From Candidatus Desantisbacteria bacterium CG1_02_38_46 (GTDB lineage Bacteria > Desantisbacteria > UBA1551 > UBA1559), in assembly GCA_001871015.1 (NCBI GenBank), contig MNUO01000093.1, positions 1 to 41,269 of the forward strand: a stretch of 41,269 nt of DNA. Direction: 5' to 3'. The first letter of the stretch is position 1; each line of letters begins with the position of its first letter. The translations under genes were made by a program, and so were the position numbers. The notes under the pieces were generated by a model, which ran no database searches, had not been told where the DNA came from, and worked only from the letters and a program-made list of their open reading frames with translations. Of this stretch, positions 11,267-30,421 are shown piece by piece.

Positions 11267-11326
11267 ATCTCCCCTTGTCCGATAGTTCCTAACTTAATAG
11301 AAAATGCACACAAATGCACATTTTTC

Positions 11327-11354
11327 TTGACTTTTGATAAAAATGTGATATACT
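11327..11354 (+). promoter_or_regulatory. Sigma70-type promoter for candidate sRNA
   Basis: TTGACT (11327-11332), 16-nt spacer, TATACT (11349-11354); direct repeat AAATGCACAC AAATGCACAT just upstream. Confidence 0.65.
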
Positions 11355-11360
11355 ATTATT

Positions 11361-11438
11361 AGACTCAGGGTATAGTGGGAGATGTTGGGTTAACCTGACT
11401 ATCGGTACTACCACTATCACACCTGAGTTTTTCTTTTT
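11361..11438 (+). ncRNA. Candidate small RNA antisense to the DUF3800 3' end, ending in a terminator-like hairpin plus U-tract
   Basis: ACTCAGG(11363-11369)..ATAGTGG(11372-11378)..CCACTAT(11411-11417)..CCTGAGT(11422-11428) followed by TTTTCTTTTT; promoter placed for a start near 11361. Confidence 0.5.
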
Positions 11439-12180
11439 CTGATGGTTTAAAATACCAAATGTTAAATTTGGGAAAATAGGTTTCTACATAGGTTTTTGAA
11501 TATCTATCCCAAGTAATAGGTAATAAATCTTTGGCACCTAATTTTTTTATGAGATATTCTCGAAGGGCTTTTTTATACTTATTTTTTGGAGGAACCAAAT
11601 TATTAGTTACACACCCTAATAGCAAATCGCAAATTTGCAGTACTTGATATTGGTCCAAGCATGAATCAACTTCTTCAATTCTGGTGAGAGTAGGAATTGG
11701 CTTACCCATTGAATAGTTTTGATTCGGTACACAGAAACATTCTTTCATTCTCTCTACAAAAAGGTCACCCCGGCATCTTGTCAAACGATCTGTTAATAAA
11801 ATTCCCATATATGTTTTTTCTGTATTATGAGCAAGCAAAAGTTCTGCAAATTTTTTATAAGCCCTTGCTTTCTTTATATTTTCTGACTCATAAGGAGCAC
11901 CGAAGTATGAAAGATTCATTTCTTTGATCACGATACATCTAAACCAACTTGTACTTTCAAAAAAGGCATCAATAGCTAATTTTGAAACTTTGAGGCTCTC
12001 TTCGTTCTTGCAATAGAAATACTTTATTTCGCGGAACCTTCCGTTTCTCAAGTAAAATTTATTTTCTTTTTTAATCTCACATATCTTTCTATGAAGGAAT
12101 CGCGGATGAGGATTGAACAAAGCTCCTAATAGTAAATAAGCATGTTGCTCATCATAAGATTCATCAAAATATATCAACAT
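11365..12180 (-). CDS. DUF3800-family protein
   Basis: MLIYFDESYDEQHAYLLLGALF...LLTDRLTRC...QYQVLQICDLLLGCVTNNL. The last ~20 residues (RCDSGSTDSQVNPTSPTIP) are encoded by a hairpin element. Confidence 0.72.
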   Translation of the reverse strand: MLIYFDESYDEQHAYLLLGALFNPHPRFLHRKICEIKKENKFYLRNGRFREIKYFYCKNEESLKVSKLAIDAFFESTSWFRCIVIKEMNLSYFGAPYESENIKKARAYKKFAELLLAHNTEKTYMGILLTDRLTRCRGDLFVERMKECFCVPNQNYSMGKPIPTLTRIEEVDSCLDQYQVLQICDLLLGCVTNNLVPPKNKYKKALREYLIKKLGAKDLLPITWDRYSKTYVETYFPKFNIWYFKPSEKEKLRCDSGSTDSQVNPTSPTIP

Positions 12181-12183
12181 TCT

Positions 12184-12483
12184 CTATTCGCCTTTCATTG
12201 CTCTCAGACGATAATATCTCCGGGTATAGTATGCCCAAGATTTTGTAACATCTAAATTTGTTCTTTCCTTTACAGTTTTCCTCAGTCTCAATAATCGTTT
12301 TGTTGTTTCTTTTGAAATTTTCAGGTCGCGAATAAAATGCTTATAATAATTATTTAGAAAAAACCCATTCTTTTCTGACATTTCCAAATACTCCCAAATT
12401 TTATTAGCCACATCCCAATATAACAAAATTCTTTCTTTATCCTGAGTTCTTTTGATTCTTTTTAAGGTTTTCCTGCAATACAT
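12184..12483 (-). CDS. Small basic protein of unknown function, upstream partner of the DUF3800 gene
   Basis: 99 aa, ends 3 nt before the DUF3800 start; RILLYWDVANKIWEYL...YYKHFIRDL weakly resembles DUF1016_N-type sequences. Confidence 0.5.
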   Translation of the reverse strand: MYCRKTLKRIKRTQDKERILLYWDVANKIWEYLEMSEKNGFFLNNYYKHFIRDLKISKETTKRLLRLRKTVKERTNLDVTKSWAYYTRRYYRLRAMKGE

Positions 12484-12551
12484 AATAGTATCACTATAAA
12501 TCTTTTCAAGATATCCAGTTTTTTGTGTTAAGTTTACATTAGTTTTCCTAT

Positions 12552-12622
12552 GGGGTCAGGTCTTGAATTGTGAGTTCATAAATTCATTTTTCTTGTTAAT
12601 TCACAATTCAAGACCTGACCCC
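12552..12622. repeat. REP-like inverted repeat, 22-bp perfect arms
   Basis: GGGGTCAGGTCTTGAATTGTGA ... TCACAATTCAAGACCTGACCCC, 27-nt loop; ends 5 nt from the tyrS stop. Confidence 0.9.
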
Positions 12623-22284: not shown

Positions 22285-23597
22285 TTAAGTTTTAAGTGAG
22301 AATTTTAGATTCAAACGCTTCTTCAAAAATTTTTGTTTCCATCCCTCTTTAGAACTTTCAAACCTACCTTGATTATCTTTAAATTGGTCTCCTTTTGGTT
22401 CAATAAAAATCTGATAAATACTTATGGTTCTATTTCTCTTTTTCAAAATCATTATAAAATCTGGTTCAAATGCTCTGCCTTCATCGAAGTCAAAAACTTG
22501 AAAGAATTTTTCATTGCGAAGTAAAGCAATATCTGAATATTTCTGTCTTAACTTTTCTATAACTTCGTCAATAAACTTATATTCTATTTTATCTCGAGTA
22601 ACACCTGATGGCACTGGCTTCTCCATTTCGTCTAAAATAATTTCTTCTTTAATTTCTCCGGTTCTTAATTCATATTCATATTTTTCTTCAATTTTTGCGT
22701 CCTGCAAGCTAAATATTTCCGTTCTTGGATTTTGTATCCGGTCATTTACAAAAATTACACCTTCTTCCCAAAACTCAGTTTCCTTGAAGGAGTCTTTGAT
22801 AAACAAATCTCTCTGAATATACTTTTCCGGCAAAATTCCCATTTCAGTAAGAGCGCTCTTGATTTCACTAATGTATTTAACATTGTGAAAACTATGATAG
22901 TGCAAAGTTTCTATAATCCGCAGTTCATTTTCAACATCTTCGTCAAATTTCCTTTTATATTTGTCCTGTATTTCATCCATCTGAAATGGAAAATATCTTG
23001 CTCCTCTGCCGATAAGCTGCGCCTCGCCCATCGTGGTATTGCCGGGCTTATACTTATCGTGGACCCATTTCCCATCTCAGGTATCATACAACCTGACGAT
23101 ATCAAACAAATTAAGCACATCCCATCCTTCATTTAGCATATTAACCGCAAAGATTGCTCTGATTTCATTATTTATGGTTTCTAAAGAATTAAGTTTTAAT
23201 TGCTTTTCTTCGTCAACATTTTCAGAATCCAAAATCATACACTTTTCATCAGAAAAATCTTCTTGCAATTCTCTAATTAAATTGTCAAAAGTTATATTTT
23301 CTTTTTTAAAATAGTTAAATGCCTTTTCCAGTGTTGTACCTTTTGCCGATGATGCGCCTCATCAGAGATAAGCACAATATCCTTTTCTTCAAAATCTTCC
23401 TCTGTCAAAACATTCTCTTTAGATTGTCTTTTTTGATAACCATTAAAATAAAAATCAAATCTCCCCAACGCTTCTTTCTGATACTCCCGCAGTTCAAACT
23501 TTGGATTGAGATTCTGGACTATCTCATCGCTGACACGAGAAGTAAAATAATCCTGCCCATGTGCTTCTTTTAATGAATTAAAAATTTCGTAAAGCAT
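22285..23597 (-). pseudogene. Decayed type III-like Res/DEAD helicase-nuclease
   Basis: Three ORF pieces (23292-23597, 23077-23268, 22285-23031) read as one protein: NLNPKFELREYQKEALGRF ... IVLISDEAHH / (frameshift) KGTTLEKAFNYFKKENITFDNLIRELQ...MLNEGWDVLNLFDIVRLYDT*DGKWVHDKYKPGNTTMGEAQLIGRGARYFPF. Walker A region missing; in-frame TGA at 23077-23079. Confidence 0.85.
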
Positions 23598-23599
23598 AG

Positions 23600-24598
23600 T
23601 TAACCACTCAAAAGATTGGTAGTAATTTTTATTAAAATATCTTTACCTTTTGGATTGCTTACAGCAATTAAAAGTGATAATGCTGTTAAGGTACTATCAT
23701 TTATCTTCTTTTCCCCGGATAAATGATAAAGATAATTGTTTCTGTCTAAAAAATAAACGAATAAAAAAGAGGCAATCCGTTTATTCCCATCAATAAAAGG
23801 ATGGTCCTTAATAATAAAATACAAAAGATGCGCAGATTTTTCTTCAAGCGAAGGATATAATTCGGTTTTGTTAAATGTCTGGCAGATATTTCCTAAAATT
23901 GCCTTAAATTTCTCTTCGGGTTCTTGTCCAAATAAATCGCTGGCTTCTCTTTTGGTCATCAATTCGGCTTTTATTTTTTGAATTACTCGTTTAGCATCTT
24001 CATACGTCAAAATAAATTTCCCTCTTGCTTTTTTAACAAGTGGTATCTTTTGTTTATCGTACTGCTCAAGCAGAGTAAGTGTTTTAGAATAATTGGAAAG
24101 TAAATTTAATATTTCCTGCTCTTGTCCTGCAAGAAGCTCATGCTTAGTTTTTTCTTGCAGAAAATCAATCGCCATTTGTAATTCTTTCAGACAATTTTGT
24201 GTTTGCAAAAGTCGCTTTTCGTTAATGGTATACCCCTTAACCAAATGCTCTTTAAGGGTTTTTGTTGCCCAAATCCTGAATTGCGTTGCGCGCTTAGAAT
24301 TAACACGATAGCCAACAGAAATAATAGTGTCTAAATTATAAAATTGTGTTTTATAGGTTTTACCGTCAGCGGCAGTATGTTCCAAAATGGAACATACTGA
24401 ATTTCTATCTAATTCCCTACTTTCGAAGATATTATTTAAATGTTTTGTAATTGCCGGCCTTTTAGTATCAAAGAGCAAAGCAATCTGGGCTTGCGTGAGC
24501 CATACGGTCTCCTTCTCCAGCCGTACTTTTAACTCTATTTCTTTTTTAGAGGTCCGGTAAATAACTATTTCGCCTCTATTAAATTCTTGCTTTGCCAT
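23600..24598 (-). CDS. RhuM-like domain fused to Fic/Doc domain protein
   Basis: N-terminal EIELKVRLEKETVWLTQAQIALLFDTKRPAITKHLNNIF...YNLDTIISVGYRVNSKRATQFRIWAT (RhuM); C-terminal HPFIDGNKRIASFLFVYFL (Fic/Doc motif). ORF 23600..24631, Met12 preferred start. Confidence 0.88.
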   Translation of the reverse strand: MAKQEFNRGEIVIYRTSKKEIELKVRLEKETVWLTQAQIALLFDTKRPAITKHLNNIFESRELDRNSVCSILEHTAADGKTYKTQFYNLDTIISVGYRVNSKRATQFRIWATKTLKEHLVKGYTINEKRLLQTQNCLKELQMAIDFLQEKTKHELLAGQEQEILNLLSNYSKTLTLLEQYDKQKIPLVKKARGKFILTYEDAKRVIQKIKAELMTKREASDLFGQEPEEKFKAILGNICQTFNKTELYPSLEEKSAHLLYFIIKDHPFIDGNKRIASFLFVYFLDRNNYLYHLSGEKKINDSTLTALSLLIAVSNPKGKDILIKITTNLLSG

Positions 24599-24627
24599 AA
24601 TGTTTAAATCCCTTCGTAAAATTCGCT

Positions 24628-25179
24628 TCAAAGATTTCTAAAAATACTAATAATTTTCTTGACAACTTCTTCAATTGTCATTTCTGAAGTGTCAATTACA
24701 TAATGTGCACAGGCATTATAATATGGTGCTCTCATTTTTAGCAACTTTTTAATCTCACCCTTCAAACCCATTTTACCCTTCAGTAAAGGTCTCTCATTAT
24801 TCTTGGCACTTTTTATTCTCTTCAGTATAACATCAGGACTTGCTTTCAGATAAAAAACAATCCCGCACTTTCTCAAAATTCTGCGGTTCTCTGCATTTAG
24901 AACAATTCCCCCACCTGTTGAAACAACTACTCCTTTTATTCGAGAAATTTTATTAGCCATCTCCTTCTCAAGTTTTCTAAAATAAGGCTCACCATAAATT
25001 TTAAATATATCCTTTATCTTCATTCCCTGTTCATTTTCAATGAGCACATCTACATCTGCTATAGGCATTTTTAAACGCTGTGCAAGTCTTTTTGCTACAA
25101 CACTTTTTCCGCTTGCCATAAAACCAATAAGAATGACATTCACTTTAAAAATTTCTGACATATTTGACATATTTTTCAT
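24628..25179 (-). CDS. aroK: Shikimate kinase
   Basis: VILIGFMASGKSVVAKRLAQRL...ADVDVLIE...EPYFRKLEKE...VVSTGGGIVLNAENR. Confidence 0.93.
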   Translation of the reverse strand: MKNMSNMSEIFKVNVILIGFMASGKSVVAKRLAQRLKMPIADVDVLIENEQGMKIKDIFKIYGEPYFRKLEKEMANKISRIKGVVVSTGGGIVLNAENRRILRKCGIVFYLKASPDVILKRIKSAKNNERPLLKGKMGLKGEIKKLLKMRAPYYNACAHYVIDTSEMTIEEVVKKIISIFRNL

Positions 25180-26278
25180 AATTTAATTTCATTTCCTGCA
25201 ATGTTTCACCACCAAATTTCTCAGTCATTGCAGATGCAATTTCTATCGCAACCATTGCCTCACCAACAACCCCTGCAGCAGGTACGGCACAGACATCTGC
25301 CCTTAAAACTGGAGCTTTTGCCGGTTTCTTTGTCTTCAAATTCACTGAATTCAAAGGATTGGCAAGCGTGGGAATTGGCTTCATTGCTGCCCGCAGTACT
25401 ATAGGTTCCCCGTTACTCATCCCGCCTTCAATTCCACCGGCATTATTTGTTTTATGGAAAAATCCCCTATTTTTTGAATAGAAAATTTCGTCATGAACCT
25501 GTGAGCCGAATTCTCTGGCTGAATTAAAACCCAATCCTACTTCAATCCCTTTTATGCCCTGAATGCTCATAACGGCAGCAGCTAATTTTGCATTAAGACG
25601 TCTATTCCACTGGATATAACTGCCCAGCCCCACAGGAATATTAAAAACAATCACTTCAAAAACTCCACCTACAGAATCTCCTTTTTTCTTTGCTTCATCA
25701 ATTTTCTTCATCATCTTCTTCTCAGATTCTTTATTCAAGCACCTCAGCGGCGAATCATCTATTTTTTTAATTTTTCTTTTTAGACTATTGACTAAGGACC
25801 CATGCTTGTCCGCCTTTATCCCTCCAATTTCCACTACATAGCTTAAAATTTCAATTTTAAACTCTTTCAGCAGTTTCTTGGCAACTGCGCCAGCAGCCAC
25901 TCTTGCTGCAGTCTCCCTGGCGCTGGCTCTTTCCCATATTTTTCTAATATTCTTTTGATTGTAACTTATTGCACCAGGTAAATCTGCATGCCCCGGACGG
26001 GGAACATTAATCGGTCCTGATTTACGTTTTTGCCAGTCTTTATTCCAGATAGCAAGAGTAATAGCTCTACCTGTGGTTTTATTTAAACGAACTCCGCTTA
26101 ATATTTCTACCTTGTCTTTTTCAATTTTCATCCGCCTGCTTCTTCCATATCCGGCCTGGCGTCTTTTTAATTCAATATTTATACCTTTTACATTTATACT
26201 CAAACCTGCAGGTATTCCTCTCAGGGTTGTAAATAATCCCTTTCCGTGAGATTTGCCACCTGTTATAAATTTTATCAT
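25145..26278 (-). CDS. aroC: Chorismate synthase
   Basis: ITGGKSHGKGLFTTLRGIPAGL...RRQAGYGRSRRMKIEKDKVEILSGV...RPGHADLPGAISY...SARETAARVAAGAVAK. Confidence 0.96.
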   Translation of the reverse strand: MIKFITGGKSHGKGLFTTLRGIPAGLSINVKGINIELKRRQAGYGRSRRMKIEKDKVEILSGVRLNKTTGRAITLAIWNKDWQKRKSGPINVPRPGHADLPGAISYNQKNIRKIWERASARETAARVAAGAVAKKLLKEFKIEILSYVVEIGGIKADKHGSLVNSLKRKIKKIDDSPLRCLNKESEKKMMKKIDEAKKKGDSVGGVFEVIVFNIPVGLGSYIQWNRRLNAKLAAAVMSIQGIKGIEVGLGFNSAREFGSQVHDEIFYSKNRGFFHKTNNAGGIEGGMSNGEPIVLRAAMKPIPTLANPLNSVNLKTKKPAKAPVLRADVCAVPAAGVVGEAMVAIEIASAMTEKFGGETLQEMKLNYEKYVKYVRNF

Positions 26279-26365
26279 ATTTCCCCTACCTTAGCATTTC
26301 TATTATTGTTCCTTTTTCTTGTATGCAAATTTTGATTTCAAACATGCTTTCCCCCTACTTCTCTT

Positions 26366-28585
26366 TCATAATTCTAAGGTTTTCCAATTATTAAAATCGT
26401 TATCCTTTAAATCCCTGTCTTGTCCTTCAAAATAAACCCATCTGCCTTTATAGTCTTTTGGGTCAGCGTTAGTAACTATCCCTCCAAATAACTTTTTACC
26501 TTTTTTGTTTTCGCTTTGGATATATTGATATAATCCTTCAACCTTTGGTCCTGCGGTCTTCAGAGTTAAACCTGCTTTTGTATCAAATAAACCAATCCTT
26601 CCGTCTTTCATCTGTATTATGAAATCTACATAAAAAGGTTTCTGCCAACCATTATCGTAAGGTACAGCAAAGAACGTTGCATCCCGATCCTCGTTCTTGA
26701 ACCACCAAACAATGCCATTTGGTTTTTCTAAAAAATCAACAAACACCTTTTCAATCTTAGACAAATATTTGACATAGAATGGCTGCACGATGGATTTTTT
26801 TCTGTCTTCTTTTATGTCGTCACTGCCAAATTGCAAATACTCAGGAACGTTCCAGATTTCATCAGGAATAAGCAACGGCTTTCTTTTTGCAGTTTCTTTT
26901 ATATATTCCTGTTTCGCAGAATCAATAACATTAACAAAATGCTGTTTGTTTTTGCTGCTTAACGCTATACCGATTATGTCATCCTGTGCTTCTTCGCATT
27001 TTATTTTGAATTTCTGTTCAAAAAAAGTATAAATAGAAGTCTTTATTCTTCCTACGGACCTGTCTTCGGGATATAACGGGCTTAAACTTTGCCTTACAAA
27101 GAAATCGAATGTTTTTTGTAAATCAGAACCGCTCTGGCGAATTGATTTATCGCCCACAATTGTTGCCTTGACTAAAGAATCAACATCTTCTTTTTTCTGG
27201 TCAGCGATAATCCTTGCATCAACATTTCTTGATTTTATATCAACTTTTTTCTTCAAATCATATTTTTTTGCTTCTTTCAAAAATATTTCGATGAAAAGCG
27301 GTGATAACCTTGTTTTCTCGCGATGCCGTTCTGAATGGCAGGATAACAAATTAATCGGCTTATAGTCCTTCTCCCTTATGCTCTTGTAAACCGTGATATA
27401 GTCTTTGGCAATATCTTCTTGTATCTCAATATCTTCCAGATTAGTATAAATATGCCCATAATTCAATATATCGTTTTTATAATGCCCTATATCCGGCTGC
27501 GGCATACGCATAATTCTCCCCACGGTCTGAATGGAAAATATCGCACTGTGCCATTCTCTGAATAATACTAATATCTGGGCACGCGGACAATCCCAACCCA
27601 GAGCTATTGCTTACTTGAAAATAAGAACTTCAACTTCGCTGTCATTTTTTTCAACATTTTCTTTGTTTATATGCTCCCCCGAAAGCCATATAGCTAATTT
27701 ATTATTTTCGGTGGAAATCTTATGCTTGTTCTCTAAAATCTTTATCACCCCGTCTTTCATTGTGTCTTCAAGTTGTCCAATCCTGTCTGGAAGTTGAATT
27801 AACATAAGGGGATTAATATTTGCTCCGTATTTTTGGAATGCGCCTGATAATTCTTTTCTTTTTTTCAACGCCGCATCTATAACCAGTTCCTCGCTTCCAC
27901 TGCTTAATTCCGAGCTTATCTTGCCTTCCTTTAATAAATTCGTGAATCTTTCATTTAATATTACTGCCTTCTTAATCATTCCTTCTTTTTTAACATCTTC
28001 CAAAGCAACTGAAAACATATCGTCAGGATCTGTCATTTTTGGCGTTGCTGAAACTCCAATTGTCAATTTAGATCCCATCATTTCTCTTAATCCTTGAGAA
28101 ATATCGCTTTCTGCATGATGATGAATTTCATCAATAATTAGAATTATTTCCCGCCCCTCTTCTTTCGTCCTTTCAATTACTTTCGATAAATTGAAATCCT
28201 GCTCATTATCCCGTATATAAATATTGTCCGATTTATTTATACTTTCCCAATTTATAAACAAGATTTCATTTTCATTGATTTTTCTGTCTTCTAGATCTTC
28301 AAAAAGGGAGCATTTTAATACTCGGCTTGCTTCAAAATAATTTTCTAATTTTACTTTACTTTGATTGGTTAAAACTGGCCTGGGTGCAGTCCAGATAAAA
28401 GAAAACGATTGCCTGATTTCTCTATCCTCAACCAATTGTTTTAAAAATTCCGCCATCATAATAGTTTTACCTGAACCTGTTGGTGATTTGAAAACAAGTT
28501 TCTTAATGCCGGAATAGCCCAAAAGCCGTTTGGCTTTTTCCAGCAATTCATCAATAGCATTTTCTTGATAATTTTTCAGTTGCAT
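26366..28585 (-). pseudogene. Type III-like Res subunit (DEAD helicase plus PD-(D/E)XK-like C-terminus) interrupted by one in-frame stop
   Basis: ORFs 27611-28585 and 26366-27523 are in the same frame. Helicase (FKSPTGSGKTIMMAEFLK, LIIDEIHHHAE, GVSATP), then VLIFK*AIALGWDCPRAQILVLFREWHSAIFSIQTVGRIMRMP, then FYVDFIIQMKDGRIGLFDTKAG. TAA at 27611-27613. Confidence 0.85.
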
Positions 28586-28587
28586 AG

Positions 28588-28884
28588 TTAACTTCTTTTG
28601 AAACTTAAACTACCAAAATTTTGCCTATCTCTACCAGAATAATATTCACCAACGAGAGTGTTTTCTTTTTCATTAAAAAGTAATCGCGCTGTTCCTCTGT
28701 AAATACTCATAGTTTCTATGGCACCTGATTTTGGTTCGTTAATATATTGATAGCTTAAATATTTCCCCTCTGGTGCTTCAATAACAAAAGATGCGGTCTC
28801 GCTATGAGACGATGATTGCTCGGTAGTTAAAATGATTTTTATTTTTGTCCAAGCTTGAAAAATTTTTGATGATTTCTTTGTTTT
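28588..28884 (-). pseudogene. C-terminal fragment of a beta-strand-rich Cap15-like (S-2TMbeta) protein
   Basis: Manual translation: KIFQAWTKIKIILTTEQSSSHSETASFVIEAPEGKYLSYQYINEPKSGAIETMSIYRGTARLLFNEKENTLVGEYYSGRDRQNFGSLSFKRS*. Open frame with no start and no N-terminal TM part. Family call from motif memory only. Confidence 0.5.
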
Positions 28885-29041
28885 TTACTTCTTTCAATAT
28901 CGGCAATTTCTTTTTGCACATCTCGACTACTTCTTCGGCCTTGTCTTCCCAGACCAAGCCGTATTTCTTGCGCTCCTGAAGGTGTTTAATTTCCCTAACC
29001 AGCTCTTCCTTGCTCCAATTTGAATAATCTTTTTTGCTCAT
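28802..29041 (-). pseudogene. N-terminal remnant of a type III DNA methyltransferase (Mod)
   Basis: MSKKDYSNWSKEELVREIKHLQERKKYGLVWEDKAEEVVEMCKKKLPILKEVKNKEIIKN resembles Mod N-termini; truncated before any catalytic motif. Confidence 0.65.
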
Positions 29042-29044
29042 AGC

Positions 29045-30421
29045 TTACCCTGTCACTTCCCAGTGACCGCCTTTGTCTGGGCCGATTCTTCTTATTAACT
29101 TTCTTTTTTTCAATTTACTGACATTCTTTTTAATTGTCTCCGGACTCAAATTTAACCTGTCAGCTATCTGGTTCCTTGTTAGCCTGCCATCTCCTTCTAA
29201 TAACTTTAGTATGTCTATTTGATTTGCAGATAATCTTTCTGGGTATTTTCTGGGTATTTTCTGGGTATCATCCAATACCTTTTCCCTTGCCATCTTTAAA
29301 TATTCATTGCTCTGCCTGAAAACCGTATAAAAATGGGTTTCGGTATATTCTATTTCGGGAAAAGGCGCATTTTCCTCCTTGCAAATGTCTTTCATTCTCT
29401 GCATTCCAGAACCAAGTTTTTCTCCAAAGTGTATCCTTGAAAACAGGTCAGCAATTAGCTGGTTCCTTCGAAAAACAGTTTTGCCGAGAACGAAGCGTCT
29501 GGGTTTTACCCAAATATTTTCTATCTGAATTCTATCGGGAAAAAATTTCAGGATATTATTATGCCCATGCTCAAAGTAGTCCTTGTGCATCACCGAGTTA
29601 ATAACCGCTTCCCTTACAGCCTCAAAAGGATATTCATATATTTCTTCCCTTTGTGGTTTTCCTGTAAACCTGTAAGCTACCTTTGCATATAATTTTACAA
29701 AGTCCATTACTTTGTCAACAATTTCAAATAAACCCCCGGTTATTTCCTTTCTGTCAATAACGTCTGCTCCACCATGGTCTTTAAACAAAGTGACTGTAAA
29801 AACAGACCATGGAACAAATCTCTGTGGCTCTCTGGCAAAGAAAAGCACTCCAGAATTATTGAAGTATAACTTCCCTTCCTGTCGTTCAGCAACACCAAGA
29901 TTTACAAGAGCAACTTCAGATTTTATTGATTTCGAATCTTCCGCAAGTTCTAAAAATTTTAACAATTTATTTTTATCAAAGTCTTTCGGATAATTGAATT
30001 TGGGTTCTGTCAGCTCGTCGAATTTTACCTTTCCTTCCGATTTAAACAAATCCATTATTTCATTTCTCGTGAGCTTCTGAACATTTGAACCGATCCTCCT
30101 ATAAAAACCCGAGGAGCATTTATAAGGCTTATCGTCACCCTCGCGGACATTTACAATCAGCATATTTTGAAATTGCTCAAGAATTATTTTTACTCTCGGT
30201 TCACAATTATTGGCTATGTCCTGTATCTGTGATTTCAGTCTGTTGCCAACCCGGGTCCCTTTGATAAGACCATCGTCGCTGACGCCCAGAAATATTCTTC
30301 CGCCAGATGAATTGGCAAAAGCAATTAGTTCTCGCTCAATGTTATTCAGGCTTTCTTTGAATTCGACCTTGTAACCCTCTCCCTCCTGAAGAATGAATTT
30401 CAGCTCTTTTTCGGTAATCAC
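29045..30421 (-). CDS. Schlafen/AlbA_2-domain ATP-binding protein with C-terminal winged helix
   Basis: EGYKVEFKESLNNIERELIAFANSSGGRIFLGVSDDG...YPFEAVREAVINSVMHKDY...RLTRNQIADRLNLSPETIKKNVSKLKKRKLIRRIG. Confidence 0.88.
   Translation of the reverse strand: MITEKELKFILQEGEGYKVEFKESLNNIERELIAFANSSGGRIFLGVSDDGLIKGTRVGNRLKSQIQDIANNCEPRVKIILEQFQNMLIVNVREGDDKPYKCSSGFYRRIGSNVQKLTRNEIMDLFKSEGKVKFDELTEPKFNYPKDFDKNKLLKFLELAEDSKSIKSEVALVNLGVAERQEGKLYFNNSGVLFFAREPQRFVPWSVFTVTLFKDHGGADVIDRKEITGGLFEIVDKVMDFVKLYAKVAYRFTGKPQREEIYEYPFEAVREAVINSVMHKDYFEHGHNNILKFFPDRIQIENIWVKPRRFVLGKTVFRRNQLIADLFSRIHFGEKLGSGMQRMKDICKEENAPFPEIEYTETHFYTVFRQSNEYLKMAREKVLDDTQKIPRKYPERLSANQIDILKLLEGDGRLTRNQIADRLNLSPETIKKNVSKLKKRKLIRRIGPDKGGHWEVTG
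29236..29268. repeat. 11-bp perfect tandem repeat x3 within the AlbA_2 CDS
   Basis: TTTCTGGGTAT three times at 29236, 29247 and 29258. Confidence 0.95.

What the first reader, a model, noticed from the sequence alone, without database searches (positions are those of the whole stretch)
11327..11440. Candidate free-standing small RNA antisense to a DUF3800 gene
On the + strand, where nothing else is coded, TTGACT-N16-TATACT is followed within 9 nt by a two-part stem (ACTCAGG/CCTGAGT and ATAGTGG/CCACTAT) enclosing a 32-nt loop with GGGTTAACC, then TTTTTCTTTTT. The layout predicts a ~75-nt transcript starting at the stem base and ending in a U-tract. It covers the 3' end of the minus-strand DUF3800 gene, whose last ~20 residues derive from it. 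A tandem AAATGCACA repeat upstream of -35 could be an operator.
Basis: partly seen in the sequence, partly recalled or inferred. Interest (0 to 1): 0.72.

Follow-up and report, generated by a model that had tools for sequence, protein, structure and literature searches.

The report
Small RNA gene facing DUF3800 nuclease
A bacterial gene for a putative nuclease of unknown role (DUF3800) has a tiny self-contained RNA gene facing its end; the same layout recurs at about a third of such genes in distant bacteria, which suggests the RNA is the enzyme's partner rather than an ordinary antisense regulator.

Summary
TTGACT-N16-TATACT with an extended -10, a ~66-nt hairpin (-29.5 kcal/mol, z -3.9) starting at the predicted transcript start, and a U-tract are all there. 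It is the only such unit found in the window, and 0 of 300 shuffled windows match its promoter, stability and compactness. It is an orphan in sequence: no Rfam match, no second copy in the genome, no close relative of its DUF3800 protein, so covariation could not be tested on it.

What it is comes from comparison. The other two DUF3800 genes of this genome, and the one in the only same-order genome held, each face a promoter-hairpin-U-tract unit at their 3' end. One is Rfam DUF3800-VII RNA; another belongs to a class without an Rfam match but with strong covariation. Across 386 genomes 34 of 91 DUF3800 genes have such a convergent unit, against 11 of 216 neighbouring genes (p 5e-12). In relatives the RNA usually ends near the stop codon, so the antisense overlap here is probably secondary: this ORF runs 24 codons into the RNA gene.

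Best reading: a free-standing partner RNA of a DUF3800 protein, probably binding and restraining it. Association is shown; mechanism is inferred.

The parts
11302..11320 (+). tandem AAATGCACA-C-AAATGCACA upstream of the -35; possible regulator site, unproven
   Evidence: sequence; only copy in the genome at up to 3 mismatches
11317..11347 (.). inverted repeat CACATTTTT (11317-11325) / AAAAATGTG (11339-11347) around the -35; possible operator or chance
   Evidence: sequence
11327..11354 (+). sigma-70-type promoter TTGACT-N16-TATACT with extended -10 TG
   Evidence: same promoter style at 15 other sites of the genome, 0 in the reversed control
11361..11438 (+). predicted small RNA gene, about 68-78 nt: closing stem 11362-11378 with 11411-11429, inner hairpin 11381-11403, U-tract 11428-11438
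   Evidence: equivalent convergent RNAs at related DUF3800 genes
11365..12180 (-). DUF3800-family gene (P0001, 271 aa), FDES and LQICD motifs present; last 24 codons overprint the RNA gene
   Evidence: Pfam PF12686 E 1e-5 above cut-off; PADLOC PDC-M04A E 1.5e-12; PHROG 3732 E 4.8e-10
12184..12483 (-). 99-aa ORF 3 nt upstream of the DUF3800 ORF, probably same operon; function unclear
   Evidence: weak PHROG 26954 hit E 5.5e-6

Best explanation
11327-11438 is a free-standing small RNA gene that belongs with the DUF3800 gene facing it. Sigma-70 RNA polymerase starts at about 11361 and stops at the U-tract, giving a ~70-nt hairpin RNA. I propose that this RNA folds, binds the DUF3800 protein (a family described as RNase H-fold nucleases) and holds it inactive, in the manner of an RNA antitoxin, as part of a defence or addiction module. 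Antisense pairing with the 3' end of the DUF3800 mRNA is at most a secondary effect. Shown by computation: promoter, fold and terminator anatomy; recurrence of the same layout at DUF3800 genes; known RNA families in the same place. Inferred: expression, binding, inhibition.
For: (1) Anatomy of a complete transcription unit, matched by 0 of 300 shuffled windows at its compactness. (2) All three DUF3800 genes recognised in this genome (this window, contig 97 = L040, contig 71 = L049) and the one in the same-order genome G001 (L022/L033) have a strong promoter plus structured RNA plus U-tract pointing at their 3' ends. (3) The G001 RNA is Rfam DUF3800-VII, 39.5 bits against a threshold of 36.2; DUF3800-VII at L105 (74 bits) and DUF3800-IX at L078 (52.7 bits) are also convergent. 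(4) In 386 genomes, 34 of 91 DUF3800 genes against 11 of 216 other genes of the same loci have a convergent unit, p 5e-12; stricter, 22 of 91 against 9 of 216, p 6e-7, and all 9 strict controls are genes in PDC-M04A DUF3800 loci, so the true background is probably lower. (5) RNA class follows protein subfamily across genomes: one class at L035/L040/L094/L098/L114, another at L115/L125, another at L025/L027/L049. (6) The class at contig 97 shows covariation: 8 of 20 pairs changed on both sides in 5 sequences, 0 of 500 shuffles as high, slid controls 1. (7) DUF3800 is described as an RNase H-fold family linked to ncRNAs (PMC10910872). (8) Precedent: AbiF of C. difficile is neutralised by a ~100-nt promoter-terminator RNA through direct binding (PMC12373285).
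Against: The window RNA has no detectable homologue: no Rfam match, no match to the contig-97 class model, no match to its own single-sequence model elsewhere except weak, probably unrelated ones; so covariation is untested for it. Most DUF3800 genes (57 of 91) showed no such unit in my scan. The protein is a divergent member (Pfam E 1e-5) and no close relative was found. No expression data. Toxicity of DUF3800 and RNA binding are not shown in anything I could read. The single-sequence structure prediction failed (pLDDT 34). Orphan copies of the contig-97 RNA class without DUF3800 show that the link is not absolute.
Confidence: 0.55

Rival explanations
1. Cis-antisense RNA: the RNA (or its transcription) represses DUF3800 by pairing with the mRNA 3' end or by collision of polymerases.
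For: In the window the RNA is perfectly complementary to the last 24 codons; convergent transcription is inherent in the layout.
Against: In most relatives the hairpin's U-tract lies near the stop, so little or no coding sequence is covered. A sister RNA is conserved in structure with compensatory changes, which pairing to the mRNA would not require. A strongly self-folded RNA is a poor duplex-former (general knowledge).
Confidence: 0.15
2. The RNA is an activating cofactor or guide that makes DUF3800 an RNA-directed nuclease.
For: RNase H fold reported for DUF3800 and its occurrence beside Cas12a2 systems (PMC10910872; PMC12669027); RNA class tracks protein subfamily.
Against: No array, variable region or spacer-like segment was seen next to the RNA; the RNA is almost fully self-paired.
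Confidence: 0.15
3. Trans-acting small RNA unrelated to DUF3800, sitting there by chance.
For: Complete promoter-terminator unit; no homologue to tie this RNA to this protein.
Against: Enrichment at DUF3800 genes, and all four DUF3800 genes seen in this order having one.
Confidence: 0.1
4. Chance promoter-like and hairpin sequence; no transcript.
For: About one looser look-alike is expected per shuffled window; the sequence is an orphan.
Against: At its actual strength and compactness 0 of 300 shuffled windows match; its position matches a recurrent layout.
Confidence: 0.05

Closest known systems
DUF3800-associated RNA families of Rfam (DUF3800-VII RF02967, DUF3800-IX RF02968; also VI RF02915, XI RF02975)
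   Same: Small structured RNA gene beside a DUF3800 gene; VII and IX were found here in the same convergent position; VII in the same order of bacteria with nearly the same promoter sequence.
   Different: The window RNA matches none of the 4227 Rfam families at E up to 10. The VI and XI members seen here lie upstream of the gene, not convergent.
AbiF / RCd22 of Clostridioides difficile (RNA-neutralised toxin, type III-like; PMC12373285)
   Same: About 100-nt ncRNA with its own sigma-A-type promoter and terminator, next to the gene of a protein that it neutralises by binding.
   Different: RCd22 lies upstream, on the same strand, and is partly co-transcribed with abiF; the protein family is unrelated. 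Here the RNA is convergent and separately transcribed.
Type III toxin-antitoxin (ToxIN)
   Same: An RNA partner of a nuclease is the proposed principle.
   Different: ToxI consists of tandem repeats upstream of toxN and is cut out by ToxN (general knowledge); here one single-copy hairpin, no repeats, opposite strand, an RNase H-type family.

Membership tests
DUF3800-associated structured RNAs (as a kind) | lies immediately beside a DUF3800 gene | tested here: met
   PF12686 E 1e-5 above cut-off, PDC-M04A E 1.5e-12
DUF3800-associated structured RNAs (as a kind) | own promoter and intrinsic terminator, stable fold | tested here: met
DUF3800-associated structured RNAs (as a kind) | structure supported by covariation among homologues | tested here: inconclusive
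   no homologue of the window RNA found; a sister RNA of the same genome has it
Rfam DUF3800-VII or any other registered DUF3800 RNA family | covariance model score at or above the family threshold | tested here: not met
   no match at E up to 10
Type III toxin-antitoxin (ToxIN kind) | tandem RNA repeats directly upstream of, and co-transcribed with, the toxin gene | tested here: not met
   single-copy RNA, convergent strand
Type III-like RNA antitoxin (function) | RNA binds and neutralises a toxic protein | not testable with these tools
   needs binding and toxicity assays
cis-antisense RNA | overlap with the target coding sequence conserved in relatives | tested here: not met
   hairpin and U-tract mostly end near the stop codon in relatives

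The most novel reading that the evidence does not exclude
DUF3800 proteins form a large, largely unrecognised set of RNA-partnered nuclease modules in which each protein subfamily has its own small structured RNA encoded face-to-face with the gene or operon; the window RNA is a new class of it, and some RNA classes also exist as orphan copies that act in trans.
Probability: 0.4. Interest if true: 0.75.

Novelty: new variant of a known kind. Interest (0 to 1): 0.52.

Why it matters
DUF3800 is a widespread family, described as RNase H-fold, whose function is unknown. Rfam holds several RNAs named after it, but I found no mechanism in the papers I could read. Here the association is measured independently: about a third of DUF3800 genes in 386 diverse genomes face a self-contained RNA gene, and most of those scanned match no Rfam family. 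If the RNA is a bound partner, the pair becomes directly testable by co-expression and pull-down in simple two-gene loci. The comparison also corrects the antisense reading: the overlap with the coding sequence in this window looks like a later extension of the ORF.

Tried and rejected
Terminator of the DUF3800 gene itself: rejected, no U-tract follows the hairpin on the minus strand. Leader or attenuator of a + strand gene: rejected, no + strand gene follows. Short peptide on the RNA: only ATG-TTG-GGT-TAA. Registered RNA family: none (the microRNA matches are the palindrome at 12551-12622). Repeat copies of the hairpin in the genome: none; the DNA matches at contigs 50 and 77 are to the promoter only. 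Homologues of the protein in IMG/VR, plasmids, phages and GTDB contigs by peptide patterns or tblastn: none; only two genomes of the phylum are held. Membership of the window RNA in the contig-97 class: rejected. Single-sequence structure prediction: unusable, so no fold search was run. The source paper of the DUF3800 RNA motifs as I remember it (Nucleic Acids Res 2017, gkx699) is not held, so I could not compare with its own description. My first scan for antisense hairpins without a promoter requirement was less specific and was replaced by that.

Full report
Observation. Transcription from TTGACT-N16-TATACT with an extended -10 would start at about 11361, two bases before the ACTCAGG stem, and end in TTTTTCTTTTT. 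The RNA folds to -29.5 kcal/mol, z -3.9. Loose look-alikes are expected about once per shuffled window, but at this strength, stability and compactness none appears in 300 shuffles. The promoter is the genome's own style: the pattern TTGACWTT-N9-TGTGNTATACT has 16 sites against none for the reversed pattern, most of them upstream of genes. I built that pattern partly from this site, so the count shows the style, not the site.

What the neighbour is. The minus-strand gene is a divergent DUF3800 protein (Pfam E 1e-5 above cut-off; PADLOC candidate defence model PDC-M04A E 1.5e-12) with FDES and LQICD motifs like those of the other members. A KFN-x-[FW] motif near the C-terminus lies 12-17 residues from the end in most related proteins that have it, and 34 residues from the end here. 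The extra tail is the part encoded by the complement of the RNA gene and its U-tract, so the reading frame has run into the RNA gene.

The key comparison. A DNA search of 59 related genomes matched only the promoter, but one match in the same-order genome G001 sits at the 3' end of a DUF3800 gene, pointing at it, and is followed by a different hairpin and T-tract. That hairpin is Rfam DUF3800-VII RNA (39.5 bits, threshold 36.2). The other two DUF3800 genes of the window's own genome also face such units: contig 97 (TTGACA-N17-TATAAT, L040) and contig 71 (TTGACT-N17-TATAAT, L049).

Statistics. I gathered DUF3800 loci from 386 genomes and scanned antisense to each gene's 3' end for promoter, folded RNA and U-tract. 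At relaxed thresholds 34 of 91 DUF3800 genes and 11 of 216 other genes of the same loci have one (p 5e-12); at stricter thresholds 22 of 91 and 9 of 216 (p 6e-7). All nine strict control hits are genes of 146-198 codons in PDC-M04A DUF3800 loci, so they probably belong to the same system; in these loci the RNA seems to sit at the end of the operon. The scan sometimes takes a later U-tract than the one closing the hairpin, so single positions in that list are approximate.

Covariation in a sister class. The contig-97 RNA belongs to a class shared with DUF3800 loci L035, L094, L098 and L114. On a plain MAFFT alignment of the five, 8 of 20 pairs have changes on both sides, against a shuffled mean of 4.2 with 0 of 500 reaching it, and 1 in every slid control. 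The Rfam scans that included L035, L040 and L098 did not match it. A covariance model of it found a further convergent copy at a DUF3800 gene (L140, G377) and three strong copies with no DUF3800 ORF recognised within 1.5 kb (L137, L138, L139). The pair counts on the model-fitted alignment lean towards the structure and include one reverse-strand row, so I rely.

The window RNA itself remains an orphan. It has no Rfam family, no match to the contig-97 class and no second copy in the genome, and its protein has no close relative in four collections. Its place in the DUF3800 RNA kind therefore rests on anatomy and position, not on homology.

Mechanism. The RNA classes follow protein subfamilies across genomes, are structured, are separately promoted, and abut but rarely overlap the coding sequence. 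This fits an RNA that is bound by the protein. Published work describes DUF3800 as an RNase H-fold family associated with ncRNAs (PMC10910872) and as an accessory nuclease of some CRISPR loci (PMC12669027). A close functional precedent is AbiF, neutralised by direct binding of a ~100-nt RNA (PMC12373285). I therefore favour an RNA that restrains the nuclease, with an activating cofactor and cis-antisense action as the main rivals. Expression, binding and restraint are all inferred.

Noticed in passing
L133 1501-1569 (own genome contig 97), L132, L134, L135, L136, L140: A DUF3800-linked RNA class with strong covariation (closing stem, GAYAAGAGCCC hairpin, CCGAAAGG hairpin, GTAG, GGTC) not matched by Rfam in the loci scanned.
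   Followed up: yes
L137 1501-1566, L138 1501-1566, L139 1501-1566: Orphan copies of that RNA class with no DUF3800 ORF recognised within 1.5 kb: between dapF and a 5'-3' exonuclease gene, beside a type I restriction-modification hsdM, and in a third unrelated spacer. They hint at action in trans.
   Followed up: partly
L049 (own genome contig 71), L027, L025: Another shared convergent RNA motif, GGATCGGGGTGTCTCCCGGTCGA plus terminator hairpin, at DUF3800 proteins ending in GLK-x-FP.
   Followed up: partly
L026, L037, L054, L055, L056, L057, L059, L061, L062: In PDC-M04A DUF3800 loci the convergent promoter-hairpin unit faces a neighbouring 146-198-codon gene; several begin with a shared CTCATCTACCA-like stretch.
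   Followed up: partly
window 12551-12622: Nearly perfect palindrome (GGGGTCAGGTCTTGAATTGTGA type) between the 99-aa ORF and tyrS; related pieces at several other places of the genome; looks like a REP-type element.
   Followed up: partly
window 22285-30421: Defence-like stretch with pieces of type III restriction helicases (ResIII at 23292-23597 and 27611-28585), a RhuM-Fic protein (23600-24631) and a Schlafen AlbA_2 protein (29045-30421).
   Followed up: partly
L002 minus strand, about 1350-1535: The same promoter style followed by a leader with a short ORF and an attenuator-like hairpin with T-tract before a gene.
   Followed up: no
L021 minus strand, reverse-complement position 1797 onward (G001): TTGACA-type promoter followed by two hairpins and a T-tract with no DUF3800 seen; another candidate small RNA.
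   Followed up: no
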